A stretch of 51,422 nt of DNA, taken from contig NZ_JAPCID010000053.1 in NCBI RefSeq assembly GCF_027587175.1, positions 1 through 51,422 on the forward strand, read 5' to 3'. A model generated the notes under the pieces. It was not told the DNA's origin. It worked only from the letters and a program-made list of their open reading frames with translations, and did no database searches. The position numbers and the translations under genes are program-made. Position 1 is the first letter of the stretch, and each line of letters starts with the position of its first letter. This document shows, in pieces, positions 3,967-28,251 of the stretch. Source of the DNA: Solirubrobacter deserti (GTDB lineage: Bacteria > Actinomycetota > Thermoleophilia > Solirubrobacterales > Solirubrobacteraceae).

Positions 3967-5823
3967 ATGGCCGATGATACGAGGGTGACGCATTCGCGAT
4001 CGGGTCTCGCGTGCGCGATGGTGCTGCTCGCCGCCGTCTGCTGCCTGCTGCCGGGGGTGGCCGCCGCGCAGGGGGAACCCGTGCCCACGGTGACGCCGAC
4101 GCCCGTGCCCACGCCGACGGGCCCGGACATCACGTGGCCGCTGCTCGTCACCAACGACGCCGACGTCGACGCCGCCGAGGCGTGGGACATCTCGATGGGC
4201 GCGGACGTCACCGTCGGCGTCATCGATCAGCGGATCTTCGCCGGCCACAGCAAGTTCGCCGGGCGCATCGACACCGAGGAGAACGTCGTGCTGCCCGGTG
4301 AGGAGTGCGGCGCCGCCGCGCCGACCCTCACGGCCGATCACGGGACGCTGATCGCGGGCCTGATCGTCGCGCAGGGCGGCGACCCGGACGCGACGGGGAA
4401 CATCGCGGTGCGCAAGCTGTCCGGGCTGGCGCCGGAGGCGCGGGTCCGCCCGATCCGTGCCGTCAACCACTGCGGCAGCGCCACCCGCCGCGCCATCACG
4501 GCCGCCATCCGGTACGCCGGGGCGGCCGACCTGCCGATCGCGGTCGTGTCGTTGGCGACTGATCCACTGCTCCCGGTCTCCGAGCAGGAGAAGACCGCCG
4601 AGGAGCTCGAGGCCGCGTTCGCGGACTCGCCCGACACGCTCTTCGTCGTCGCCGCCGGCAACCACGGCAACGACAACGACGTGCCCGGCCGTCAGGTGTA
4701 CCCCTGCTCGAGCGAGGCGCCGAACGTCGTCTGCGTCGGCATGACGGGGGACCCGGTCACCAGCGTGCCGGGCGGCGTCTACACCGACGCGCCGGTGTGC
4801 TGGGGCAACGTCGGCGCGACCTCCGTGGATCTGTTCGCCCCGGGCCTGGCCATCTCCTCGACGGCGCGCGGGGCTGAGGGCGGGTCCGCGTACGCCGTCC
4901 GGCCCGGCACCTCGATGGCGGCGCCGCTCGTCGCCGCCGCGGGGGCGCTGATCGAGGCGGTGGATCCGCTCACCTTCGAAGGGCCCGCCAAGCTCAAGGA
5001 GCTGCTGCTCGACGGCGGCGACTGGCACACCGAGCTGGACCCGATCTCGGTCAGCGGCCGCCGGCTCAACGCCGCCCGCTCGCTCGGCTCCCAGGCGCGG
5101 CTCGGCCGGCCGCCCGCGAGCAAGGCGTGGCAGAGCTGCGACCCCGACCACGACGAGGTCCGCGGCGCCGAGGAGGACTGCCCCAACGAGCCCGGCACGC
5201 TCGCGGACCGCGGCTGCCCCGACACCGACAAGGACGGGAAGGTCGACCGCCTGGACAACTGCCCGCGGTTCGCCAACGCGAACCAGGCCGACACGGACCG
5301 CGACGGCCTCGGCGACGGGTGCGATCCGACCGAGCGCGGCCCCAACACGGACGGCGACCAGCTCCCGGACATGGACGACGCGTGCCCGCTGCAGTCTGCG
5401 CTGACCGCGGACGGTTGCCCGGTCATCGTCCAGCCCACGCCCACCCCCACGCCCCGGCCGCCCGATGACGACGACGGCAACGTGAACCCGGGCACGCCGA
5501 CGCCCGTGCCAACCCCGACGCCGGCGCCGACGGTCGTGCCCGACCCGGGGCTGCAGATCACCGTCCTGAAGGCCGAGCCGACGCGCAGCAAGGCCGTCAA
5601 GGTCACCATCCGGCTCTCGCGCACGGCGAAGGTGGCGCTCAAGGTCGAGCGCAAGATCGGGCGCAAGTGGCGCCGGGTGACCACGAAGTCGGTCACGGCG
5701 TCGATCAGCCTCAAGAGCCTCACGCTGCGCGCCGCCAAGGGGAAGAAGCTCTCGCGCGGCAGCTACCGGGTGACCGCCACCGTCGGTCGGCTGACCAAGA
5801 GCGCGCAGTTCAAGGTGAAGTGA
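3967..5823 (+). CDS. Secreted S8 subtilase with calcium-binding Asp-rich repeats
   Basis: From the ATG at 3967 (AAGG 10 nt upstream) the protein has 618 residues; a GTG at 3943 is an alternative start. A signal peptide ends near AAAQ and a Pro-Thr linker follows. The subtilisin triad is visible: D87 in VGVIDQ, H125 in DHGTLIAG and S316 in PGTSMAAP, with the oxyanion Asn in AAGNHG. The region after the first Asp is DQR rather than the usual DTG. Residues ~385-480 carry thrombospondin type 3-like Asp repeats (DTDKDGKVDRLDNCP, DTDRDGLGDGCDP) that normally bind calcium. A second Pro-Thr linker leads to a basic beta-sandwich tail rich in Lys and Arg. It is presumably an extracellular or wall-attached endopeptidase. 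The stop overlaps the GTG of the next gene by 4 bp. Confidence 0.88.
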   Translation: MADDTRVTHSRSGLACAMVLLAAVCCLLPGVAAAQGEPVPTVTPTPVPTPTGPDITWPLLVTNDADVDAAEAWDISMGADVTVGVIDQRIFAGHSKFAGRIDTEENVVLPGEECGAAAPTLTADHGTLIAGLIVAQGGDPDATGNIAVRKLSGLAPEARVRPIRAVNHCGSATRRAITAAIRYAGAADLPIAVVSLATDPLLPVSEQEKTAEELEAAFADSPDTLFVVAAGNHGNDNDVPGRQVYPCSSEAPNVVCVGMTGDPVTSVPGGVYTDAPVCWGNVGATSVDLFAPGLAISSTARGAEGGSAYAVRPGTSMAAPLVAAAGALIEAVDPLTFEGPAKLKELLLDGGDWHTELDPISVSGRRLNAARSLGSQARLGRPPASKAWQSCDPDHDEVRGAEEDCPNEPGTLADRGCPDTDKDGKVDRLDNCPRFANANQADTDRDGLGDGCDPTERGPNTDGDQLPDMDDACPLQSALTADGCPVIVQPTPTPTPRPPDDDDGNVNPGTPTPVPTPTPAPTVVPDPGLQITVLKAEPTRSKAVKVTIRLSRTAKVALKVERKIGRKWRRVTTKSVTASISLKSLTLRAAKGKKLSRGSYRVTATVGRLTKSAQFKVK

Positions 5824-6560
5824 ACGCGGGCGTTCTCGCCTTCGGCGACTCGATCACCAACGGTGGCGGGGAGCTGCAGTGGGGCGTCGCGCTGCAGTCG
5901 TGGGCGCTGTGGACGGCCCGCGGGCTCGGGCTGCCGTACACGGGCTACGCCGTCGACGGCGCGCGGGTCGGGGACGTCGCGGACATGCAGGTGCCGGCGT
6001 TCCTGGAGCGCACGGCGCTGCCTGAAGCCCGGTACGCGGTCGGCTGTCTGTACGCGGGCGTCAACGACGTGCGGGTGCCCGGCTTCGACGCGGCGGCGTT
6101 CGAGGCCGCGTACGCGTCGGTCGCTACGTTCCTCGCGCAGCGGTGCGAGCGGGTGTTGGTGGTGACGATCCCGGACGGGCTCGGACTTCCGCGCGCGGGC
6201 GGGATCGCGGCCGGCAACGCGGCGATCCTGCGCGTGGCCGCGGACGTTGGCGCGCTCGTGCTCGACCTACGCGACTTCGGCGCGCGCAACCACGTGATGG
6301 CCGACCGCGTGCACCCGACGGCGTTCGGTCAGGTGGCGATCGCCGAGCGTGCGCTGGCGGTGCTCGCGGCGGACGGGATGGCCGTGCGCGTGCGGCCCTC
6401 GGCCCTGATCGCGCCAAGCGAGCGCACGCGGCTGCGCACGCTGCAGGGCGACTGGAGCTACGTGTACCGGACGCTCAAGGGGCTGGCTCGGGCTTCGGGT
6501 GCCGCGGGTCGGGTGCGCCGAGCTGTTCGAGCCGCTTCGGGACGTAGCGGTAGCCGATGA
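5820..6560 (+). CDS. SGNH/GDSL family hydrolase
   Basis: The 246-residue protein has the SGNH blocks: FGDSITNGGG (nucleophile Ser), YAGVNDVR (Gly-x-Asn-Asp) and DRVHPTAFGQ (catalytic Asp and His). Such enzymes are serine esterases or lipases acting on acyl or acetyl esters. No signal peptide is seen, so it is probably cytoplasmic. It starts at a GTG overlapping the subtilase stop by 4 bp (GTGA), which implies translational coupling. The C-terminal ~28 residues are Ala/Arg/Ser-rich and are encoded in the region that overlaps the convergent DUF3159 gene by 86 bp. The substrate is not predictable from the sequence. Confidence 0.85.
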   Translation: MNAGVLAFGDSITNGGGELQWGVALQSWALWTARGLGLPYTGYAVDGARVGDVADMQVPAFLERTALPEARYAVGCLYAGVNDVRVPGFDAAAFEAAYASVATFLAQRCERVLVVTIPDGLGLPRAGGIAAGNAAILRVAADVGALVLDLRDFGARNHVMADRVHPTAFGQVAIAERALAVLAADGMAVRVRPSALIAPSERTRLRTLQGDWSYVYRTLKGLARASGAAGRVRRAVRAASGRSGSR

Positions 6561-7125
6561 ACAGCAGCAGGCCGAATGCGGGCAGGCCCATCGCGATCGA
6601 CGCGACGCCGAGCGCCTCGACGTTGCCGATGTAGATCAGGTAGGCGTAGATGGCGGCGCGCAGGCCGAACAGCGCGGCCCAGGCGAGGGTGTACTCGGTC
6701 ATCACGCGGCGCACGGCGGGCTGCTGCGGCCACCCCGGCTCGGCGCGGTAGAGCGTCGCGACGATGAAGCCCGCGAGCGGGCGCCGGATCAGTGCCGAGC
6801 CGGCGAAGATCACGCACAGCCCGAGCTGCTGGAGCATCTTCGGGACGAAGTAGCCCTCGGCCTGGCCGCTGCGGACGGCGATGAATGCGGCCAGGCCGGT
6901 GCCGAGCAGGCCGCCGACGGCGTTCATCACCGACTTGCGGCGCACGAGCCGCTCGACGAACAGGGCGATCCCGATGCCGACCGCCACGGCCGCCGCCAGG
7001 TTGACCTCCTTGGTGATCGTGTAGACGATCACGAACGCCAGCGGCGCCAGCGCGGTGTCCGCCAGCGCCCGCCGGTCGCGCAGCATGTCGAACGGGCCGG
7101 GCGGGTGCTGGTCGGGTGGCGTCAC
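6475..7125 (-). CDS. DUF3159 family integral membrane protein
   Basis: The 216-residue protein has about six hydrophobic segments, including TALAPLAFVIVYTITKE, LAAAVAVGIGIALFVERLVRRK and AIYAYLIYIGNVEALGVASI. The region VGGLLGTGLAAFIAVRSGQAEG, with the following LIRRPLAGFI, matches the actinobacterial DUF3159 pattern. Function is unknown. The GTG at 7125 overlaps the stop of the methyltransferase gene (GTGA), so the two are likely translationally coupled. It is the last gene of a four-gene minus-strand run that begins with the second subtilase. Its 3' end is antisense to the end of the GDSL hydrolase gene over 86 bp. Confidence 0.8.
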   Translation of the reverse strand: MTPPDQHPPGPFDMLRDRRALADTALAPLAFVIVYTITKEVNLAAAVAVGIGIALFVERLVRRKSVMNAVGGLLGTGLAAFIAVRSGQAEGYFVPKMLQQLGLCVIFAGSALIRRPLAGFIVATLYRAEPGWPQQPAVRRVMTEYTLAWAALFGLRAAIYAYLIYIGNVEALGVASIAMGLPAFGLLLFIGYRYVPKRLEQLGAPDPRHPKPEPAP

Positions 7126-8030
7126 GCGCGTTTGCGGGCCGCGAGCATGAGGTTGTAGAACAGCTGCGGCGGCAGGCGGGGCTCGAGCAGCGAGCGGTCC
7201 ACGCGCTGGAGCAGGATGTAGCCCTTGTAGGCGTACTGGATCCAGCCCCACGGGACGTCCTTGGGCTCGGCGCTCGCCTCGAGCGTGCGGTTGAACCAGC
7301 CGAACCAGTTCGCGAGCAGCTCCTCGCCGCGGACCTCGACGTCGGTGAAGCCGCCGGCGGCCGCGTGCCGCTTGAGGTCGGCCGGGACGAAGGCGTGTAC
7401 GTCGACGACGGCCTCCAGCGCGTGTTCGTCCTCGTCGGCGCCCTGGTGCTGCGGCGCGGGGCGCGCCTTGACCGCGCGGCGCCACAGCGGGGCGGCCTTG
7501 ACCGCGGCCCGCTTCGGGATCGCGGCGAGCTTGTCGCCCTGGCGGGACGGCTCGCCGGCGAAGAACAGCGTGCCGCCCGGTTTCAGGACGCGGTGGAACT
7601 CGCGGAACGCCTGGTCGAGGTCCGGCAGATGGTGCAGGACGGCGTGACCCAGGACGAGGTCGAAGGACGCATCCTCGAACGGGAGTTGCGTCGCGTCGCA
7701 CGCCGCGGTCTCGACCTCGAGGCCGAGCTCGTGCGCGTTGTGCTCGAGCGTGGCGAGCATGCCCGGGCTGATGTCCGTGCAGGTGGCCTGCTCGATCACG
7801 CCGGTCTGCAGCAGGTTGAGGCTGAAGTACCCGGTGCCGGCGCCGATCTCGAGCGAGTGCGCGAACGGCCCGGGGTTCGGGCCCAGCAGCTTCGCCAGCT
7901 TGCCGAGCACCTGCTGGTGGCCGATCTCGCCGAAGGAGATGCCCCACTTGGAGTCGTACGTCTCGGCCGCCACGTCGTGGTAGCGGCGGTTGACGTCGAG
8001 GATCTCGTGCTCTGTGGGCGGGGCGGCCAT
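7122..8030 (-). CDS. Class I SAM-dependent methyltransferase
   Basis: The 302-residue protein contains a Rossmann-fold methyltransferase core: motif I LEIGAGTGYFSLNLL, an acidic residue in CTDISPGML, ACDATQLPFEDASFDLVLG, and the post-motif HHLPDLDQAFREFHRVLKPG, typical of the Methyltransf_11/UbiE-like group. It transfers a methyl group from S-adenosylmethionine to an unknown acceptor. The C-terminal third (ADLKRHAAAGGFTDVEVRG, then WGWIQYAYKGYILLQ) may form the acceptor pocket. The start is the ATG at 8030; the frame extends upstream without good motifs. It lies 19 bp after the PstS-like gene and overlaps the DUF3159 gene by 4 bp, suggesting an operon. Confidence 0.87.
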   Translation of the reverse strand: MAAPPTEHEILDVNRRYHDVAAETYDSKWGISFGEIGHQQVLGKLAKLLGPNPGPFAHSLEIGAGTGYFSLNLLQTGVIEQATCTDISPGMLATLEHNAHELGLEVETAACDATQLPFEDASFDLVLGHAVLHHLPDLDQAFREFHRVLKPGGTLFFAGEPSRQGDKLAAIPKRAAVKAAPLWRRAVKARPAPQHQGADEDEHALEAVVDVHAFVPADLKRHAAAGGFTDVEVRGEELLANWFGWFNRTLEASAEPKDVPWGWIQYAYKGYILLQRVDRSLLEPRLPPQLFYNLMLAARKRA

Positions 8031-8049
8031 ACGCGGCCACTGAGCGTAG

Positions 8050-8925
8050 CTACGGGACCACGTAGCGGGACGCGATGACGCGCCGGGCCGTGGCGTCCGT
8101 CCTGATCCAGGCGAGGAACCGGGCGAGCGCGCCGGCCGGGCGCCCGCGCGTGACGAACCCGAGCGTGCGCCGCGCGGGATAGGAGCCGTCGGCCACGGTC
8201 GCGCGCGTGCACGGGACGCCCTCATAGGGCACGGCGTGCAGGCGGCGCGCGAACTCGAGGTCGACGTACCCGAAGGCGGCCGGGGTCGCGGCGATGTGGT
8301 CGCGGACCTGGGCCGAGGCGGTGTAGGTGGTGGCGGGCGCGAGCGGCGTCGCGAGGTCGACGAACGTCGTCAGGAACACGTTGCGGGCCGCGGAGGTGAC
8401 GTCGAAGGTGACCCGCTCGATCGCGTCCCGGCGCGGCGCGCCGGCGATCTGCGCCCAGCTCGTCGTCGCGCCGGAGACGAGCGGCTGCAGCTGCGCGCGC
8501 GTGAGGTTGGGCACGCGGTTGGCCGGGTTCGTGACCAGGCAGATCGCCGACCGCGCGAGCGGCGTGAACGTGAGCCCGGGCGGGTCCCCGGGCTCGAGCC
8601 CACGCCCCGACAGGCCCGCGTCGACGATTCCGCGCGCCGCGTCCGCGATCCCGATGCCGGTCCCGCCGCCCACGAGCGAGAACCGCGGCGCGTCGGCTCG
8701 CTCGCGCCGGTAGAAGTAGGCGAGGTCGGCCACGACGGCCTGCGCCGGGCTCGCCCCGCTCATCGTGATCGTGCGCGCCGCGCCGGGCGCCGGCGACGGC
8801 GTGAGGAGGAGAGATGCAACCGTCGCCGCACCCAGCAGCCGGCGCGCACGTTTGAGGGCGGCGCCGCGGCCGCGGGCCGGGCCGGGCGAGGGGGCCGCGC
8901 CGCTCGCGCCGCTCAGCCCACCCAT
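8050..8925 (-). CDS. PstS-like extracytoplasmic solute-binding protein
   Basis: The 291-residue protein starts MGGLSGASG, passes an Arg-rich n-region and has a hydrophobic signal segment (LLGAATVASLLLTPSPAPGA). The mature part begins TITMSGASPAQ and includes LVGGGTGIGIADAARGIVDAG, LVTNPANRVPNLTRAQL and DLEFARRLHAVPYEG, a layout typical of PstS-type phosphate-binding proteins. The binding motif seems diverged, so phosphate as ligand is not certain. The start overlaps the end of the upstream subtilase by 13 bp, consistent with co-transcription. No Pst permease or ATPase gene is nearby. Confidence 0.7.
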   Translation of the reverse strand: MGGLSGASGAAPSPGPARGRGAALKRARRLLGAATVASLLLTPSPAPGAARTITMSGASPAQAVVADLAYFYRRERADAPRFSLVGGGTGIGIADAARGIVDAGLSGRGLEPGDPPGLTFTPLARSAICLVTNPANRVPNLTRAQLQPLVSGATTSWAQIAGAPRRDAIERVTFDVTSAARNVFLTTFVDLATPLAPATTYTASAQVRDHIAATPAAFGYVDLEFARRLHAVPYEGVPCTRATVADGSYPARRTLGFVTRGRPAGALARFLAWIRTDATARRVIASRYVVP

Positions 8926-10289
8926 ACCGCGCCTCCGATCCCGCCGCCCGTGCCCACGTGGCGCTTGCCGGAGCGCAGCGTCCGGACGCGGGCGCTGGCC
9001 CGGGACAGGCGGCGGCCGTCGGCGGCGAGGGCGTAGACCGCGAGGCGGCGGCCGGCGCGATTGCGCAGGCGCACGTTGAGCACCGTGCGGCCGCCGCGCA
9101 GCTGGGCGACGCGGCGGCCGTCGAGGCGCAGCTCGATGCGGGCGACGCTTCCGGCCGCGCCGAGCACGGCGAGCTGGGCCTGGGTCGTGCGGCCCTTGCG
9201 GGTCGCGCTCAGCACGCGCAGCGACGGCGGCTGGCTGCGGTCGTAGCTCGCGGTTCCACTGGCGGCGAGCACCGCGCCGAGCGCGTCGACGTAGCCCGCG
9301 CTGACCGGGACGGACCCGCGCGTGGCGTGCTGGAGCAGCTGCGCGCGCAGCTCCGCCGCCGGCAGGTGGGGCGCGACCGACGCCATCAGCGCGGCGACGC
9401 CCGCCACGTGCGGCGCCGCCATCGACGTGCCGGACTTGAATTCGTAGCCGCCCGACTTGGAGGTCGAGATCACCTCGACGCCGGGAGCGGCGACGGGGAC
9501 GGTCAGGCGGCCGTAGTTGGAGAAGTCGGGCAGCGAACGGCCCTGGTCGGGCTCGGTCGCGGCGACGCCGACCACGTTCGAGGCGGGGATGGCGACCGGG
9601 TAGACGGGCTGCTGGTCGACGTTGACGCCGCTGTTGCCGGCCGAGCACACGATCAGCGCGTTCGCGGCCGCGGCGGCTTCGATCGCGGTGCGCATGCGCG
9701 GGTCGTCGACGTTGCCCTCGAGGCTGAGGTTGATGATCCGCGCGCCCATCGCCGCTGCGTAGCGGATGCCCTCGGCGACGCCGCCGGTGGTCCCGCCGCC
9801 CTGGTCGTCCAGGACCTTGACGGTCATGATCTTCGCCCGGTAGGCCACGCCGACCACGCCGCGCCCGTTCGCGGCCGCCGCGATCGTCCCGGCCACGTGC
9901 GTGCCGTGCCCGTATCCGTCGTGGAGGTCCTGCGCGGCGCCCTTGGTCGTGAGGTCGACGCCGTGGACGTCGTCGACATAGCCGTTGGCGTCGTCGTCGA
10001 CGTTGTTGCCCGGTACCTCGGCGAAGTTCGTCCACGCGTTCGGGGCGAGGTCGGCGTGGTCGAGGCGGGTGCCGGAGTCCACGACCGCGACGGTCACCCC
10101 GGCGCCTGCGGCCAGCGCCCAGGCGCCCGGGAGGTCGAAGACGGTTCCGGGTGCGACGGCCCACTGCTCGCCCTGCAGCGCGTCGGTCGGGGCGGCCGAC
10201 GCCGGAGCAGTCGCGAGCGCGAAGGCAACAACCAAGCTTGCGGTCCGGCCGGGAATGGGGCACCTCCTGCTCAGCGCGAGCCTACCCAT
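8913..10289 (-). CDS. Secreted S8 subtilisin-like serine protease
   Basis: The 458-residue protein has an N-terminal signal peptide (hydrophobic LVVAFALATAPASA). The catalytic triad is complete: D71 in VAVVDSG, H128 in GHGTHVAGTI and S289 in SGTSMAAPHVAG, with the oxyanion Asn in CSAGNSG. The segment NVDDDANGYVDDVHGVD is a usual calcium-binding part of this subfamily. After residue ~345 a basic beta-rich domain (LRVLSATRKGRTTQAQLAV onward) ends in an Arg-rich tail. It lacks a recognisable prodomain, since the catalytic core starts soon after the signal. It is the first gene of a minus-strand run with the PstS-like protein, methyltransferase and DUF3159 genes. It diverges from the OpuAC-like gene across only 37 bp. 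Confidence 0.9.
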   Translation of the reverse strand: MGRLALSRRCPIPGRTASLVVAFALATAPASAAPTDALQGEQWAVAPGTVFDLPGAWALAAGAGVTVAVVDSGTRLDHADLAPNAWTNFAEVPGNNVDDDANGYVDDVHGVDLTTKGAAQDLHDGYGHGTHVAGTIAAAANGRGVVGVAYRAKIMTVKVLDDQGGGTTGGVAEGIRYAAAMGARIINLSLEGNVDDPRMRTAIEAAAAANALIVCSAGNSGVNVDQQPVYPVAIPASNVVGVAATEPDQGRSLPDFSNYGRLTVPVAAPGVEVISTSKSGGYEFKSGTSMAAPHVAGVAALMASVAPHLPAAELRAQLLQHATRGSVPVSAGYVDALGAVLAASGTASYDRSQPPSLRVLSATRKGRTTQAQLAVLGAAGSVARIELRLDGRRVAQLRGGRTVLNVRLRNRAGRRLAVYALAADGRRLSRASARVRTLRSGKRHVGTGGGIGGAVWVG

Positions 10290-20496: not shown

Positions 20497-21839
20497 CCAG
20501 CGACCTCACCTTCATCGACGAACAGGTGCTCAACGACTGGGTCGTCGCCCAGCGCTGGTTCGCGTCCAAGACGCGTGAGGTGTCGGGCGTGGAGGTCGTC
20601 GACTCGGTCGCGCTGTCCGAGCAGCTCGTGCTGGCGCTGATCGAGGCGCGCTTCCCGGTCGGCACGCACGAGACCTACCAGGTGCCGCTGGCTCTACGCC
20701 CGAGCGGGGACGGCGAGCCGATCTTCGAGAAGGGCGGCCAGGCCGTCTACGACGCACTGGCGGATCCCGAGACGGGTCGCGAGCTGCTGCGGGCGATGGC
20801 GGCCAACCGTGATGCCGGCGACTTCGCCTTCCGCTGGACCGCGGACCACGCGCCCGACGACAGCTTCCACGTCCGCCCCGTCGGCGTCGAGCAGTCCAAC
20901 ACCTCGATCGTGTTCGGCGACCAGCTGATCATGAAGGCGATCCGCAGGATCGAGCCGGGCGTGAACCCCGAGCTCGAGCTGCTGCGCTTCCTCTCGGCGC
21001 GCGAGTTCCCGCACATCGCGGCGTTGCACGGCTGGTACGAGGTCGACGGCCGCCACGTGTCCGCGACGCTCGGGATCCTGCAGGAGTTCCTGGCCGGCGC
21101 GAAGGACGGCTGGGAGATGACGCTGGACGAGCTCGCGAGCGACCCGGACGGGCTGCTGGGCAAGATCGAGGCGCTCGGCGTCGTGATCGGCGAGCTGCAC
21201 AGCGCGCTCGGCTCCGACAACTCCGATCCGGACTTCGCGCCCGTCGAGCCGTCCGCGGAGTCGCTCTCGATCCTGTACGCCGACGTCGACGAGCAGATCG
21301 AGCGCGTCTTCCTCGACCTGCCCGACAGCGAGGCGACCGCCCCGATCGCGGGCCGTGGCCAGGACGTGCGCGAGAAGCTCTCGCTGCTCGCGCACGCGAC
21401 GGTCGGCGGGCGCGTGATCCGCACCCACGGCGACCTGCACCTGGGCCAGACGATGTACTCGGCGCAAGGTTGGAAGGTGCTCGACTTCGAGGGTGAGCCG
21501 GCCCGGCCGTTGCCGGAGCGGCGGCTCAAGCGCTCGCCGCTGCGCGACGTGGCGGGGATGCTGCGGTCGTTCTCCTATGCCACCGCGGGGTCCCACCTGC
21601 TGCGCGGTCGTGAGGCGCCGGCCGACTGGGAGGAACGTGCGCGTGAGCGCTTCCTGGCCGGCTACCACCGGGCCGTGGACAACAGCTTGCTGCCGCCCGG
21701 GCAGCAGGCCACGGAGCAGCTGCTGGCGGTGTTCGAGCTCGAGAAGGCCGTGTACGAGCTGCGCTACGAGCTCAACAACCGGCCGGACTGGGTCGCGATC
21801 CCGGTCGCCGGGATCGTGCGCCTGCTCGAAACCGAGTGA
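20493..21839 (+). CDS. mak: Maltokinase
   Basis: The 448-residue enzyme phosphorylates maltose with ATP to alpha-maltose 1-phosphate, the GlgE donor. It has the maltokinase N-terminal cap ([20 protein letters not shown]) and an aminoglycoside phosphotransferase-like kinase domain with [34 protein letters not shown] (catalytic Asp314) and [14 protein letters not shown] (metal-binding Asp-Phe-Glu). [17 protein letters not shown] is also characteristic. The length matches mycobacterial Mak/Pep2 (about 455). The start overlaps the treS stop. No hairpin is obvious before the ECF sigma gene. Confidence 0.95.
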
Positions 21840-21847
21840 CACAGACG

Positions 21848-21867
21848 CTCGGCGTGCGGCATAGGGC
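21848..21867 (+). promoter_or_regulatory. Possible promoter with 12-base element shared with the PAD gene
   Basis: The 12-mer GCGGCATAGGGC at 21856-21867 lies 3 bp before the sigma factor GTG. The same 12-mer is found at 23136-23147, 4 bp before the PAD-like gene. If CATAGG is a -10 element, both genes would be leaderless. A weak -35-like GTGACA lies about 18 bp upstream of CATAGG here. Regulation by the sigma factor itself is a hypothesis. Confidence 0.35.
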
Positions 21868-21870
21868 CCT

Positions 21871-22428
21871 GTGAGCCCGACCGACGCCGAGCTGCTGCGC
21901 CGCTCCAAGCGCGACCCCGACGCCTTCGTGGCGGTCTACGACCGCTGGGCGGCGGACGTGCAGGCGTGGTTGGCGGCGCGCTGCGGCGACGCGGTGGTGG
22001 CAACCGACCTCACGGCGGAGACGTTCGCGCAGGCGCTGCGTCACGCCGGGCGCTTCCGCGACGAGACGGACGGGTCCGCCGGGCCGTGGCTGTTCGGCAT
22101 CGCGTCCAACCTCCTGCACCGCTACTGGCGGCGGCAGAAGGTCGACGTGTCCGCGCGGCGCAAGCTCGGCATGCGGCTCACGCCGTGGGTCGAGGACCAC
22201 GCCGAGGAGGTGGCGGAGCGGCTCGCGGTCGAGGGCGCCGGGCGGCTGCTGCACGCGGCGCTCAACCGGCTCCCGCCCGAGCAGCGCGAGGCGATCGCGC
22301 TGCGGGTGCTCGAAGGGCTCGGCTACGACGAGATCGCGCTGCGGCTCGCCGTCTCCGAGCAGGCCGCCCGCTCGCGCGTGTCGCGCGGCCTGAAATCGCT
22401 GCGAACCGAGATGGAGGGCCGCGTATGA
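21871..22428 (+). CDS. ECF-type RNA polymerase sigma factor
   Basis: The 185-residue protein has a region 2 domain (FVAVYDRWAADVQAWLAAR, DLTAETFAQALRHAGRF, PWLFGIASNLLHRYWRRQK) and a region 4 helix-turn-helix (LNRLPPEQREAIALRVLEG, YDEIALRLAVSEQAARSRVS). It lacks region 3, as expected of ECF sigmas. It would direct RNA polymerase to a small regulon, controlled by the membrane protein encoded immediately after it with an ATGA overlap. The start is a GTG with no strong Shine-Dalgarno sequence, so a leaderless transcript is possible. Confidence 0.92.
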   Translation: MSPTDAELLRRSKRDPDAFVAVYDRWAADVQAWLAARCGDAVVATDLTAETFAQALRHAGRFRDETDGSAGPWLFGIASNLLHRYWRRQKVDVSARRKLGMRLTPWVEDHAEEVAERLAVEGAGRLLHAALNRLPPEQREAIALRVLEGLGYDEIALRLAVSEQAARSRVSRGLKSLRTEMEGRV

Positions 22429-23132
22429 CCCCGCTCCCGCCCGAGCTCGCGCTGCTGCGCGAGGACCTGGCCGCCGCGGCCCGCCGGCGTGCGCGCCGCC
22501 GCCGCTGGCCGCGTGTCCTCGTCGTCTCGGGGTTCGTCACGCTCACGTTCGGCACGGCCGCCGTCGGCACCGGCCTCGTCGAGTCGCCCTTCTCGGGCGA
22601 CGAGCGCACCGTGACCGTCGAGGGTGAGCGCATCCCCTGCACGCGGACTGCGCGCGGGGAGCTGTGCCGGTTCCGTCCCGGCGAGGGTGTGGGCCCGGCG
22701 CAGCTCGCGCGGGCACTGCGCGCACGGGGCGCCGAGTTCGGCGTCACGGAGACCCGGAGCGCGAACGCGTACAACCGCACCGGCATCCGCGTGGGCGAGC
22801 GCCCCGCGGGCCGGGGCGGCTACCGCAGCACCGGCCCGCTGACGGTCACGATCACGGTCGACGGCGGCGCACCGGTGACGTGCGGCCGCACGGGCCCCAT
22901 CTGCCGTGCGTACCGCGAGGACACGCGGCGTGGCGACTTCCAGCCGCTGCTGCGCACCCTCGACGCGCGCCGGATCGTGATCGAGACCACGAGCCGCTGC
23001 CGGCTGGCAAAGCGCTACGAGTGTGAGGGCGCGCCCCGCGAGCGCGCGATCCGGCTCTCGCGCGACCCGCAGGCGATCCCCGAGCCGAGCACGACCTACA
23101 GCTACGCGAGATTGACCGTCACACGCCGCTGA
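22425..23132 (+). CDS. Putative membrane-anchored anti-sigma protein with Cys-rich outer domain
   Basis: The 235-residue protein has a short cytoplasmic N-terminus (LALLREDLAAAARRRARRRR), a transmembrane segment around residues 28-50, and an exported domain with six cysteines in three close groups (IPCTRTARGELCRF, TCGRTGPICRAY, CRLAKRYECEG). This suggests disulfides. I find no zinc-type anti-sigma motif, so the role is inferred from overlap with the sigma gene and from layout. The exported domain may sense an extracellular signal. It ends 19 bp before the PAD-like gene. Confidence 0.65.
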   Translation: MTPLPPELALLREDLAAAARRRARRRRWPRVLVVSGFVTLTFGTAAVGTGLVESPFSGDERTVTVEGERIPCTRTARGELCRFRPGEGVGPAQLARALRARGAEFGVTETRSANAYNRTGIRVGERPAGRGGYRSTGPLTVTITVDGGAPVTCGRTGPICRAYREDTRRGDFQPLLRTLDARRIVIETTSRCRLAKRYECEGAPRERAIRLSRDPQAIPEPSTTYSYARLTVTRR

Positions 23133-23135
23133 GCC

Positions 23136-23147
23136 GCGGCATAGGGC
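23136..23147 (+). promoter_or_regulatory. Copy of the 12-base upstream element before the PAD-like gene
   Basis: GCGGCATAGGGC here is identical to 21856-21867 upstream of the ECF sigma gene, and the spacing to the start codon is 4 bp versus 3 bp. It may be part of a -10 region. Upstream TTGACC (near 23112) does not have ideal spacing to it. Confidence 0.35.
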
Positions 23148-23151
23148 AGCG

Positions 23152-24864
23152 ATGCGAATCCTGCCCATGACCGCGTTGCTGGTGCTCGCAACGACCGCAA
23201 ACGCGACAGCTGTTGCTAAAGAGGGACAGTCCCTCTTCAGGAAAGCAGCGCCCGTCGCCGACCTGCAGGCCGACGCGCCGCTGCGCTTCCTTCCCAACGT
23301 CGACGACGACTCCGGCCGCTGCGCCGGCCCGCTCGCCCAGCTGGTCAAGACCGGCTTCGCCCCGGACGAGCCGGCGAAGTGCCACGACGCGGCCGACACG
23401 GTCGTCAATGGCCCCGAGGACGCGGCCGACCTGACCCCGCTGCGGGTCGCCGCGTGGCCGCAGGCACCCGACGACGCGACGGCCACCGTGACCGTCGCCG
23501 GCAACGCGCGCCTGATGCGCGACGGTGCGCAGTTCGCGGGCACGCTGACCGCCGCCGAACTGCGCGCCGGCGTCGAGCTCGGGATCGAAGGGCTGGACGT
23601 CGCCCGCGCGCCCGGCACCGGCGGCGCGGCCTTCACGCTCACGGTCGCGAGCGGCGGGGAGACGGCCACGAACACGCTCACCGGCGAGGTCGCGCCCGTC
23701 CTGTTCCCCGACGCCCGGCAGGCGCCGCAGACGCTCTACGCCCGCCGCGCGCCCACCGAGAAGGAGGTGCGGGCGCGCATCGACGAGGCCAAGTCGGTGT
23801 GGGCGCGCATCCGGCGCGAGATGAAGACCAAGCCGGCCGAGGTGCTCAAGGGCCTGCCCTCGCTCAAGCGCTACCGCCAGGACCCTGAGGGCCTCAAGCG
23901 CTTCGCGGAGCAGGAGATCGAGGCCGCCGGCGACGGCGAGCGCGCGTGGCAGCGCTTCGCCCGCGCCTACAAGAAGACGCTGCAGAAGGCCGCGCCCGTG
24001 CGCGACTTCGAGGGCGCGGTGTTCGCCCAAGACGCGTTCGAGACCGGCATCGCGGCCACGCCGCGCGGGTCGATCCGCGTGTCCGTGCTCGCGCCCGGCG
24101 TCCAGAGCCCGCGCCTGACCGGCCGGCTCGCCGCCGGCGCGGCGTGGCCGTACCAGGAGCTGCGCGGCCGCGACAAGGGCGTGGTGGCGGGTGACTACGA
24201 CGCCACGGGCGACCTCGAGCCGACGCCGCCGGCGCCCGGCGCGCCGCTCGGCAAGCTGCTCGTCGGCAGCGACCCCGGCGACGCGTGGTCGAAGTTCCTG
24301 GCCGCCCAGGGCCAGCAGCCCGTGGTGGAGATCGACACCTCCGCGCTCGCGGTCGGCCACGTCGACGAGATCGTGGCGGTCATCCCGACGACCACCGGCA
24401 AGGGCTGGGTGCTCGCCGTGGCCGACCCGGGCGGGGCGCTGAAACTCGTGCCCAAGGGCGAGCGGCTGGAGCGCGGCGTCGCCCGCGGCAGCCGCACGAT
24501 GGCGCCCGGGCTGGACGCGCTCGCGGCGCGGCTGAAGACCGAGCTCGACGCCGACGTCGTCCGCTTCCCGGTGCTGTTCGGCCCGGGCGACGGCGGGCTC
24601 TACGCCGCCACCGGCAACCCCGTCAACGGGGTGGCCGTCGGCAATCGGACGTTCCTGGCCGCGGACCCGCACGGCCCCGAGCGCGGCGGAAAGGACGTCT
24701 TCAAGGCCGCCATCGCCCATGCCCTCAAGGGGCGCGGAGTCAACCTGCGCTGGGTCGACACGCTGCCGTTCCCGCACGTGCGGCTCGGTGAGACCCACTG
24801 CTACACCAACGCCGTCCGCGACCCGGGCGCGCTCAGACGGTGGTGGGAGGCCGCCGGAGCGTAG
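23152..24864 (+). CDS. Secreted protein-arginine deiminase (PAD) homologue
   Basis: The 570-residue protein has a signal peptide (hydrophobic MTALLVLATTANATAVA). Its C-terminal half matches the PAD catalytic fold that converts protein arginine to citrulline. Visible active-site residues are D294 (in VFAQDAFETGI; PAD4 D350), H403 and D405 (in AVGHVDEIVAVIP; PAD4 H471/D473) and C550 (in GETHCYTNAVR; PAD4 C645). GDLEPTPP with LGKLLVGSDPG aligns with the human GNLEVSPP region. E297 and the Glu of GDLEP could keep the Ca1 site, while the PAD4 E351 position is Ala. A central Ig-like region (about 90-180) fits the PAD middle domain. Residues ~195-280 are helical and basic. It follows an ECF sigma/anti-sigma pair. 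Family membership is strong; the target proteins are unknown. Confidence 0.85.
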   Translation: MRILPMTALLVLATTANATAVAKEGQSLFRKAAPVADLQADAPLRFLPNVDDDSGRCAGPLAQLVKTGFAPDEPAKCHDAADTVVNGPEDAADLTPLRVAAWPQAPDDATATVTVAGNARLMRDGAQFAGTLTAAELRAGVELGIEGLDVARAPGTGGAAFTLTVASGGETATNTLTGEVAPVLFPDARQAPQTLYARRAPTEKEVRARIDEAKSVWARIRREMKTKPAEVLKGLPSLKRYRQDPEGLKRFAEQEIEAAGDGERAWQRFARAYKKTLQKAAPVRDFEGAVFAQDAFETGIAATPRGSIRVSVLAPGVQSPRLTGRLAAGAAWPYQELRGRDKGVVAGDYDATGDLEPTPPAPGAPLGKLLVGSDPGDAWSKFLAAQGQQPVVEIDTSALAVGHVDEIVAVIPTTTGKGWVLAVADPGGALKLVPKGERLERGVARGSRTMAPGLDALAARLKTELDADVVRFPVLFGPGDGGLYAATGNPVNGVAVGNRTFLAADPHGPERGGKDVFKAAIAHALKGRGVNLRWVDTLPFPHVRLGETHCYTNAVRDPGALRRWWEAAGA

Positions 24865-24930
24865 ACTCGCGCGCCGACGGCCAACTTCGGGCTTGCGAGC
24901 CCGCCGTACAGGGAAGGCAACCGAGCGACC

Positions 24931-27111
<2,181 letters not shown>

Positions 27112-27127
27112 TGGGGTGATCTGCGCG

Positions 27128-27152
27128 GTGGTGTCGCTGCCTGCGACACCAC
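27128..27152 (+). terminator. Hairpin after glgB
   Basis: A 9-bp stem (27128-27136 with 27144-27152) encloses a 7-base loop, with further pairing possible after one bulge. It lies 17 bp after the glgB stop within a 168-bp gap. No T-run follows. Confidence 0.5.
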
Positions 27153-27279
27153 GCGGCCCTCCGTGTGGAGAACGCTTTCCGCCAGCAAACGGCCCACGGC
27201 CAAGGATTCCGGGTACGACGGGCGGGCGCGGGAGCGCGGGCGCGTCAAGACGGCGGGCACCGGGCCGATGTAACGAGGT

Positions 27280-28251
27280 GTGGAAGAAGAACGCCGCCTC
27301 ATGGGTCCGGTCTCCGGGCTGCTCTGGCTCGCCGCGACGGTCGTCGCGGTGGTGTGCCGCTTCGTGCCCGGCGCACCCGACGGTCATGACGCGCTGTTCT
27401 GGGGCCTCGCCGGCTTCACGGCGGCCTACTCCGTCGCCTGCATCACGCGGCTGATCCCCTGGCACAGGGTCTCCATCGAAGGCCACGCGATCACGGTCGT
27501 GGCCTGCCAGCCGCTCGTCGCGACGGCCCTCTACGTCACGGGTGGCGCCGACGCCTACCTCGGCCCGGTGCTCGTGCTGCCGATGCTCTACGTCGCCTAC
27601 TTCTTCCCGCTGCGCTACGCGGTCCCGCTCGGCGCCGTCGAGATCCTCACCTACGCCTCCCCGCTGCTGGCCGGTGACCAGGGCCACATGCTCGTGCACC
27701 GCACGATCTCGTACGCGGTCGCCTACGTCGGCCTGGTCGCCACGATCCAGTTCCTCAAGCGCCGCCTGGTCGCGGCGGAGCGCCACCAGCACCGGATCGC
27801 GCGCGTGGACCCGCTGACCGGGCTCGCGAACCGGCGCGCATTCGACGAGGCGCTGGACGCCGCCTTCGCGGACGACCGTACGTTCACCGCCGCGCTGGTC
27901 GACATCGACTACTTCAAGCAGATCAACGACCGCTTCGGCCACACCACGGGCGACCGCGTCCTGCGCGAGCTGGCCGCGCACGCCTCGGCCGCGGTGCGCT
28001 CCGGTGATTGCCTGGCCCGCATCGGCGGCGACGAGTTCGCGCTCGTGGCCCCGGGCGCGGGCGCCGAGACCGCCGAGCGGCTCAGCGAGACCCTGCGCGC
28101 CGCCGGTCTGCGCGTGGACGCCGGCGACGGCCCGGTCTCACTCACCGTCGTCGCCGCCGTCCATCCCACCGACGGCGAGGACCGCGCCACGCTGTTGCGC
28201 GCCCTCGACCGCCGGCTGCACGACATCAAGGACGCGCGCGCTTCACGCTGA
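27280..28251 (+). CDS. Membrane diguanylate cyclase (GGDEF protein)
   Basis: The 323-residue protein (GTG 27280; ATG 27301 is an alternative start) has five or six hydrophobic segments in its first ~160 residues, for example LLWLAATVVAVVCRFV and VAYVGLVATIQFL. It then has a GGDEF domain with DPLTGLANRRAFDEALD, VDIDYFKQINDRFGHTTGD and an intact GGDEF at 249-253. An RxxD inhibitory site (RSGD) sits five residues before GGDEF. It should make cyclic di-GMP from GTP and be feedback inhibited. No EAL or HD-GYP domain is encoded nearby. Its 3' end overlaps the convergent fibronectin-type repeat gene by 26 bp. Confidence 0.9.
   Translation: MEEERRLMGPVSGLLWLAATVVAVVCRFVPGAPDGHDALFWGLAGFTAAYSVACITRLIPWHRVSIEGHAITVVACQPLVATALYVTGGADAYLGPVLVLPMLYVAYFFPLRYAVPLGAVEILTYASPLLAGDQGHMLVHRTISYAVAYVGLVATIQFLKRRLVAAERHQHRIARVDPLTGLANRRAFDEALDAAFADDRTFTAALVDIDYFKQINDRFGHTTGDRVLRELAAHASAAVRSGDCLARIGGDEFALVAPGAGAETAERLSETLRAAGLRVDAGDGPVSLTVVAAVHPTDGEDRATLLRALDRRLHDIKDARASR

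What the first reader, a model, noticed from the sequence alone, without database searches (positions are those of the whole stretch)
23152..24864. Secreted bacterial protein-arginine deiminase homologue with complete active site
The protein has the PAD catalytic residues at matching positions: D294, H403, D405 and C550, within VFAQDAFETGI, VGHVDEIVAVIP and GETHCYTNAVR. It also has a signal peptide. PADs are best known from vertebrates, with relatives described in cyanobacteria and a few other bacteria. A secreted actinobacterial copy beside glycogen genes would mean citrullination of envelope or extracellular proteins. The Ala at the PAD4 E351 position suggests altered calcium dependence.
Basis: partly seen in the sequence, partly recalled or inferred. 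Interest (0 to 1): 0.85.

Follow-up and report, generated by a model that had tools for sequence, protein, structure and literature searches.

The report
Secreted bacterial citrullination enzyme in operon
A soil bacterium carries a probably secreted relative of the animal enzymes that turn arginine into citrulline in proteins, next to a gene-switch protein and an arginine-rich membrane protein that may be its partner or target.

Summary
ORF 23152-24864 (570 aa) is a protein-arginine deiminase (PAD) homologue: Pfam PF03068, 102.9 bits against a cut-off of 25. D294, H403, D405 and C550 align with the PAD catalytic residues. A signal peptide is plausible by eye. An actinobacterial PAD is not new in kind: Cummings et al. 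2021 count PADs in 136 actinobacterial species, two-domain type without PAD_N. The Ala at the PAD4 E351 position is ordinary: 0 of 7 two-domain PADs aligned here have Glu. This copy is divergent, and PADs are rare around it (4 of 232 genomes of the order, two of them this species). The new part is the surroundings: a 3-kb block with an ECF-type sigma factor and an arginine- and cysteine-rich single-span membrane protein, between maltokinase and glgB. A homologue of the membrane protein lies directly upstream of the closest PAD relative. A 12-base motif found only twice in the genome precedes the sigma and PAD start codons. Best reading: a co-regulated secreted PAD, substrate unknown. Boldest reading: its target is the arginine-rich partner. 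No usable structure model was obtained.

The parts
23152..24864 (+). Probably secreted two-domain-type PAD homologue, 570 aa
23152..23217 (+). Probable signal peptide, residues 1-22 (AVA|K)
   Evidence: read by eye; no predictor run
23296..23430 (+). Residues 49-93, PAD_M-like acidic loop (N49, D51-D53, D79, D82, N86, D90, D93) with Cys57 and Cys77, invariant in 7 of 7 two-domain PADs aligned
24031..24033 (+). Codon of D294 (PAD4 D350)
   Evidence: PAD4 number recalled
24034..24036 (+). Codon of A295 (PAD4 E351 position, calcium site 2)
24358..24366 (+). Codons of H403 and D405 (PAD4 H471, D473) in GHVDE
24799..24801 (+). Codon of nucleophile C550 (PAD4 C645) in GETHCYTN
22425..23132 (+). Single-span membrane protein, 235 aa, Arg-rich (42 Arg, 1 Lys), 6 Cys after the span; ATGA overlap with the sigma gene; homologue directly upstream of the closest PAD relative
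21871..22428 (+). ECF-type sigma factor (Sigma70_r2 and r4_2), GTG start
21856..21867 (+). GCGGCATAGGGC, 3 nt before the sigma GTG
23136..23147 (+). GCGGCATAGGGC, 4 nt before the PAD ATG; the only other copy in the 7.09-Mb genome
20493..21839 (+). Maltokinase (mak), left flank of the block
24931..27111 (+). glgB, right flank of the block

Best explanation
The gene encodes an exported protein-arginine deiminase of the bacterial two-domain kind. Cys550 attacks the guanidinium of a peptidyl arginine held by D294 and D405, H403 assists, ammonia leaves, and hydrolysis gives citrulline (mechanism of PADs, recalled). It was acquired, or kept in this species alone among the congeners searched, as part of a three-gene block: ECF-type sigma factor, Arg/Cys-rich single-span membrane protein, PAD. 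The sigma and PAD genes probably share a promoter element, so the enzyme is made when the sigma-membrane-protein pair is activated, and it acts outside the membrane on arginine-rich proteins or peptides. Shown: homology, residue conservation, gene order, absence from five congeners, the repeated motif, and the partner's homologue beside the closest PAD relative. Inferred: enzyme activity, export, co-regulation, substrate. Calcium control is probably reduced or different, not necessarily absent.
For: PF03068 at 102.9 bits, cut-off 25. Family profile aligned to PAD1/PAD3 at E about 1e-70. Catalytic residues invariant in 7 of 7 rows. Two Cys (57, 77) invariant in 7 of 7 two-domain rows and absent from the one three-domain row aligned fit an exported protein. 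The membrane-protein frame is coding (GC3 0.936; the only positive codon score of six frames) and a homologue precedes the sister PAD (Smith-Waterman 80 against a maximum of 77 in 2000 shuffles). In a class-wide profile search strong partner matches occur in 3 of 399 genomes, the same three that carry the window-type PAD; these include the query rows themselves and two assemblies of one species. The 12-mer occurs exactly twice in the genome, at the sigma and PAD starts. Window and G216 PADs form a clade at 100/100.
Against: The protein is divergent: about 33 residues of the C-terminal domain and the DxDxDG-like loop are missing, the PAD4 W347 position is Phe, and an Arg present in the other six two-domain rows (column of residue 313) is Leu. 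The Arg proposed for peptide binding (R321) is not secure: Arg in 7 of 7 rows of one alignment but 5 of 7 of the other, and its column meets Arg in PAD1 but not in PAD3. The two assemblies of this species are identical over 13.7 kb, so selection could not be tested. No usable structure. The membrane protein has no anti-sigma domain. The 12-mer was noticed by eye and then searched; its reversed control occurs once. The sigma gene cannot be checked in G216 because the contig ends. The link of membrane protein and PAD rests on two independent loci.
Confidence: 0.6

Rival explanations
1. Envelope-stress effector: the sigma factor and membrane protein sense arginine-rich antimicrobial peptides or proteins from competitors, and the secreted PAD neutralises them by removing positive charge.
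For: A sigma factor with a coupled single-span membrane protein is a common layout in this genome: 9 of the other 29 sigma loci examined have it. Export and loss of charge fit. A Streptomyces plasmid PAD sits between response-regulator and histidine-kinase genes.
Against: No resistance-type gene in the block; no direct evidence of sensing. It does not explain the high Arg content of the partner.
Confidence: 0.2
2. Catalytically dead or decaying PAD, retained as a binding protein or on the way to loss.
For: Deletions, loss of the calcium loop and patchy distribution: 4 of 232 genomes of the order have any PAD.
Against: All four catalytic residues are kept, the frame is intact with the codon signal of a real gene (0.747, the only positive frame), and the partner is linked in two genera.
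Confidence: 0.15
3. A deiminase of small guanidino compounds (free arginine or agmatine) rather than of proteins.
For: The wider superfamily includes such enzymes (PMC8826395, passage seen). The peptide-binding Arg is not securely aligned.
Against: The matches are to protein-arginine deiminases: no PAD_porph match at E up to 1, the only other Pfam line being DUF6818 at E 0.32, below its cut-off; PDB hits are PADs only. Likely export makes free-arginine metabolism less likely.
Confidence: 0.1

Closest known systems
Two-domain PADs of actinobacteria and fungi (Cummings et al. 2021, PMC8826395)
   Same: Same catalytic set, no PAD_N, calcium site 2 ligands lost, acidic PAD_M-like loop with conserved Cys pair, hydrophobic N-terminal export-like segment (by eye) in all seven rows aligned here
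   Different: DxDxDG-like loop missing (also missing in L009), short C-terminal domain, an insert of some 60-80 residues before the QD motif shared with the G216 PAD (L011 has a partly overlapping insert), no His in the linker, sigma/membrane-protein block
Animal and cyanobacterial three-domain PADs (PAD1-4, cyanoPADI)
   Same: Catalytic domain and residues; calcium site 1 side-chain ligands Q293, E297 and E356 kept (site assignment recalled)
   Different: No PAD_N, no Pfam PAD_M match, calcium site 2 lost, export-like N-terminus
Porphyromonas gingivalis PPAD (PAD_porph, PF04371)
   Same: Secreted bacterial enzyme of the same superfamily (secretion recalled; relation in a passage of PMC8826395)
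   Different: Different Pfam family; no PF04371 match for the window protein at E up to 1
ECF sigma factor with membrane-anchored partner (anti-sigma type layout)
   Same: Sigma70 r2 and r4 domains, 4-nt overlap with a single-span membrane protein
   Different: Partner has no known anti-sigma domain, an N-terminal tail of only about 30 residues, and an Arg-rich, Cys-rich part after the span

Membership tests
PAD catalytic family (PF03068) | Profile match above the curated cut-off | tested here: met
   102.9 bits, cut-off 25
PAD catalytic family (PF03068) | Catalytic Asp, His, Asp, Cys | tested here: met
   D294, H403, D405, C550 invariant in 7 of 7 rows of two alignments
PAD catalytic family (PF03068) | Catalytic residues cluster in a PAD fold | tested here: inconclusive
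   Single-sequence model pLDDT 38, unusable
PAD catalytic family (PF03068) | Deiminates peptidyl arginine | not testable with these tools
   needs a biochemical assay
Three-domain animal/cyanobacterial PAD | PAD_N domain | tested here: not met
   No Pfam match; the aligned part begins with the PAD_M-like loop soon after the signal peptide
Three-domain animal/cyanobacterial PAD | PAD_M (PF08527) | tested here: not met
   No match at E up to 1, while the G134 PAD matches at 62.1 bits
Three-domain animal/cyanobacterial PAD | Calcium site 2 (E351 and neighbours) | tested here: not met
   A295 at the E351 column; Leu and Ala where the three-domain row has Asp and Ser
Two-domain actinobacterial/fungal PAD | Divergent PAD_M-like domain with conserved acidic loop, no PAD_N | tested here: met
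   N49, D51-53, C57, C77, D79, D82, N86, D90, D93 invariant in 7 of 7
Two-domain actinobacterial/fungal PAD | His-rich linker between the domains (triple-His motif of Cummings 2021) | tested here: not met
   Window linker VAPVLFPDARQ has no His, nor have L007 and L006; L012 has QHH, L005 HDH, L011 and L009 QHD. No row of the seven has three His in a row, so the motif does not define the group here
ECF sigma factor (21871-22428) | Sigma70 regions 2 and 4 | tested here: met
   PF04542 43.9 bits, PF08281 61.3 bits, both above cut-off
Anti-sigma factor (22425-23132) | Recognised anti-sigma domain | tested here: not met
   No Pfam match above cut-off; only INV_N at 15.4 bits, cut-off 27.8. Not filed as an anti-sigma factor

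The most novel reading that the evidence does not exclude
The block is a bacterial citrullination switch: the secreted PAD deiminates the arginine-rich outer domain of the neighbouring membrane protein and thereby sets the activity of the ECF-type sigma factor, which in turn drives its own and the PAD promoter. It would be an irreversible post-translational memory on a transmembrane signalling protein.
Probability: 0.13. Interest if true: 0.88.

Novelty: new variant of a known kind. Interest (0 to 1): 0.52.

Why it matters
What bacterial PADs do is open: the passages of Cummings 2021 that I saw name no natural substrate of a bacterial PAD. A compact block that pairs a probably secreted PAD with a sigma factor and an arginine-rich membrane protein names a candidate regulator and a candidate substrate, so the question can be tested in one strain. 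The protein also shows how far the calcium apparatus can be stripped from a PAD that keeps its catalytic residues.

Tried and rejected
Structure test: single-sequence AlphaFold gave pLDDT 38, too poor for a fold search, so none was run. Three viral-contig scans for relatives found none. The one genome-contig scan, with this protein alone, returned only the same species.

General-promoter idea: CATAGGG followed within 2-7 bases by RTG is not enriched in the genome (15 matches, 19 for the reversed control), so the motif is not a common start-codon element. Whether it is a promoter was not tested.

Link to glycogen metabolism not favoured: the block is absent from the mak-glgB junction in 5 of 5 congeners. 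In three (G001, G003, G004) only 4-9 bases separate mak and glgB; G002 has 137 bases; G005 has a different 1415-base stretch with a secreted-looking ORF. Because G000, G002 and G005 share a GGGCTTG...AGGGAAGGCA leader before glgB that the three short junctions lack, I do not claim which state is ancestral.

Phage or defence origin: no PHROGs match for the PAD and membrane protein, no PADLOC match for all three proteins. No Rfam match at E up to 0.1 in 21000-27500.

Other partner hits: seven further genomes gave weak, partial matches (9 matches, E 1.4e-5 to 0.0085). The two best cover the N-terminal tail and span; the others lie in various parts. None of the nine loci shows either PAD motif in its fetched flank (two flanks are cut short). 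They were not counted as partners.

A first partner query was in the wrong frame; its partner results are void. The right frame was used from then on.

Full report
What is there. The ORF at 23152-24864 is as described: 570 aa, ATG start, coding signal in frame. The window is contig C73 of a 7.09-Mb genome and agrees with Solirubrobacter sp. CPCC 204708 without a base difference over 13.7 kb, so the organism is a Solirubrobacter (Actinomycetota, Thermoleophilia).

Family. Pfam gives PF03068 at 102.9 bits in two stretches; the only other line is DUF6818 at E 0.32, below its cut-off. phmmer against PDB chains finds PAD1, 2, 3, 4 and 6 only, best E 3.7e-17. The profile of seven actinobacterial PADs (A2) reaches PAD1 and PAD3 at E about 1e-70. 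NCBIfam gives nothing at E up to 0.001. Catalytic residues D294, H403, D405 and C550 are invariant in all rows of two alignments of seven. The fold test failed for want of an alignment that the tool may take.

Type. Cummings et al. 2021 (PMC8826395; passages, section 7) divide PADs into a three-domain type (animals, late cyanobacteria) and a two-domain type (fungi, actinobacteria, other bacteria) and count 136 actinobacterial species with a PAD. The window protein is of the second kind: no PAD_N, no Pfam PAD_M, but the acidic loop N49...D93 with Cys57 and Cys77 that is invariant in 7 of 7 two-domain rows. All seven rows begin with a hydrophobic export-like segment (by eye). A search of that paper's main text for words beginning 'secret' finds none.

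Calcium. At the PAD4 E351 position the seven two-domain rows read A, Q, F, Y, Q, A, Y, so the Ala is ordinary. Site 1 side chains Q293, E297 and E356 are kept. The DxDxDG-like loop present in L007, L012, L005, L011 and L006 is missing in the window protein and in L009. Where the three-domain row has the Asp of site 2, six of the seven two-domain rows have Arg and the window protein has Leu. PAD4 site names are recalled; the columns are. The likely result is weaker or different calcium control. The protein also lacks about 33 residues of the C-terminal domain (compare L007). R321 is Arg in 7 of 7 rows of A2 but in 5 of 7 of A1, and its column meets Arg in PAD1, not in PAD3, so I do not lean on it as the peptide-binding Arg; on re-checking this I lowered the best explanation from 0.62 to 0.60 and raised the small-substrate rival from 0.08 to 0.10.

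Distribution. PF03068 is found in 1 of 61 relatives, 6 of 399 genomes drawn from the class, 4 of 396 from the phylum, 4 of 146 of the family and 4 of 232 of the order. These counts include the window's own genome, and its second assembly too. The nearest relative is the PAD of G216 (46% identity over 505 columns; clade support 100/100 in an 11-row tree in which 5 of 8 inner branches are unresolved). Four Streptomycetaceae plasmids also carry PADs, 26-34% identical, two of them annotated as such.

Surroundings. Upstream lie an ECF-type sigma factor (21871-22428) and, with an ATGA overlap, a 235-aa single-span protein (22425-23132). The block fills the junction between mak and glgB and is absent there in 5 of 5 congeners, none of which has a PF03068 match anywhere. 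The string GCGGCATAGGGC occurs twice in the genome, 3 nt before the sigma GTG and 4 nt before the PAD ATG (reversed control 1 occurrence). I noticed it by eye before searching. The looser form is not enriched before start codons.

The membrane protein. Arg makes up 42 of 235 residues and Lys 1; the 185 residues from 51 on hold 33 Arg and 6 Cys. In a crude gene set of 282 proteins from 400 kb of the same species the mean Arg fraction is 0.083 (SD 0.031) and 3 reach 0.179; of 59 with an N-terminal span none reaches 0.178 after residue 50 (highest 0.174). Stretches of 185 residues as Arg-rich do occur in 13 of the 282. I examined 30 of the 150 sigma region-4 matches of the genome, the best-scoring ones, this block included. 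Nine of the other 29 are followed by an overlapping gene for a protein with a span (by hydropathy) starting at residue 29-50: L065, L066, L073, L075, L076, L077, L080, L087 and L091. Their Arg fraction after the span is 0.039-0.107, against 0.177 here. Five of the 30 have no such neighbour gene and the rest have other kinds; among those L070 has 0.139, and L082, L083 and L085, with only 9-54 residues after the span, have 0.167-0.353. The high Arg content is not an out-of-frame artefact: GC3 is 0.936 and this is the only one of six frames with a positive codon score.

The link. Directly upstream of the G216 PAD, at the contig end, lie the C-terminal 115 residues of a homologue: Smith-Waterman 80, shuffle mean 37.5, SD 6.7, maximum 77 of 2000, with four Cys aligned; 18 Arg, no Lys. 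BLAST alone gives E 0.16, and a single-sequence search of the family found only this species (2 of 146). With a two-row profile, strong matches occur in 3 of 399 class genomes, the three with the window-type PAD; two of these are the same species, and the matches are the query rows themselves or their copy. Seven other genomes give weak partial matches. Beside the other PADs (L029-L034) I found no homologue, but the evidence is uneven: the single-sequence search of these loci had no significant hit and also missed the true G216 homologue; G134 had no match to the profile and G086 and G097 are not among its matches; G525 lies outside that class and was only searched. Neighbour lists by eye show nothing alike.

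Function. The most economical reading is a secreted deiminase made on command of the sigma factor. The partner is the obvious candidate substrate or sensor, but nothing here shows which. Searches of the open-access library for bacterial PADs with horizontal transfer, actinobacteria, Streptomyces, secretion, sigma factors, calcium independence or Solirubrobacter (capped listings, only PMC8826395 opened) showed no paper on such a block among the titles and abstract beginnings listed.

Verdict. The PAD call is right but known in kind. The combination with an ECF-type sigma factor and an arginine-rich membrane protein is the part worth following.

Noticed in passing
L004 and L034 (G134, same family), PAD ORF at L034 7790-9781: A PAD of the animal/cyanobacterial kind in a Solirubrobacteraceae genome: PF03068 401.9 bits, PAD_M 62.1 bits, aligned to PAD2 102-686 and PAD4 118-664 at E 1e-109 to 1e-108, Glu at the E351 column, on a 722-kb contig. 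Cummings 2021 places three-domain PADs only in animals and late cyanobacteria. PAD_N itself did not match in Pfam.
   Followed up: partly
L030, L031, L032 (G086, same class): One genome carries three divergent two-domain PADs on three contigs.
   Followed up: no
L060 (Streptomyces sp. NBC_00984 plasmid), 4712-9802: A plasmid-borne PAD lies between response-regulator and histidine-kinase genes, with transposases nearby. G216 also has what look by eye like a response regulator and a kinase next to its PAD.
   Followed up: no
window 24864-24930; L026, L027: A leader with GGGCTTG...AGGGAAGGCA before glgB is shared by G000, G005 and G002 but missing where glgB abuts mak (G001, G003, G004); no Rfam match.
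   Followed up: partly
L026 (G005) mak-glgB junction: A different insert of 1415 bases with an ORF for a secreted-looking protein occupies the same junction, so the site is variable in the genus.
   Followed up: partly
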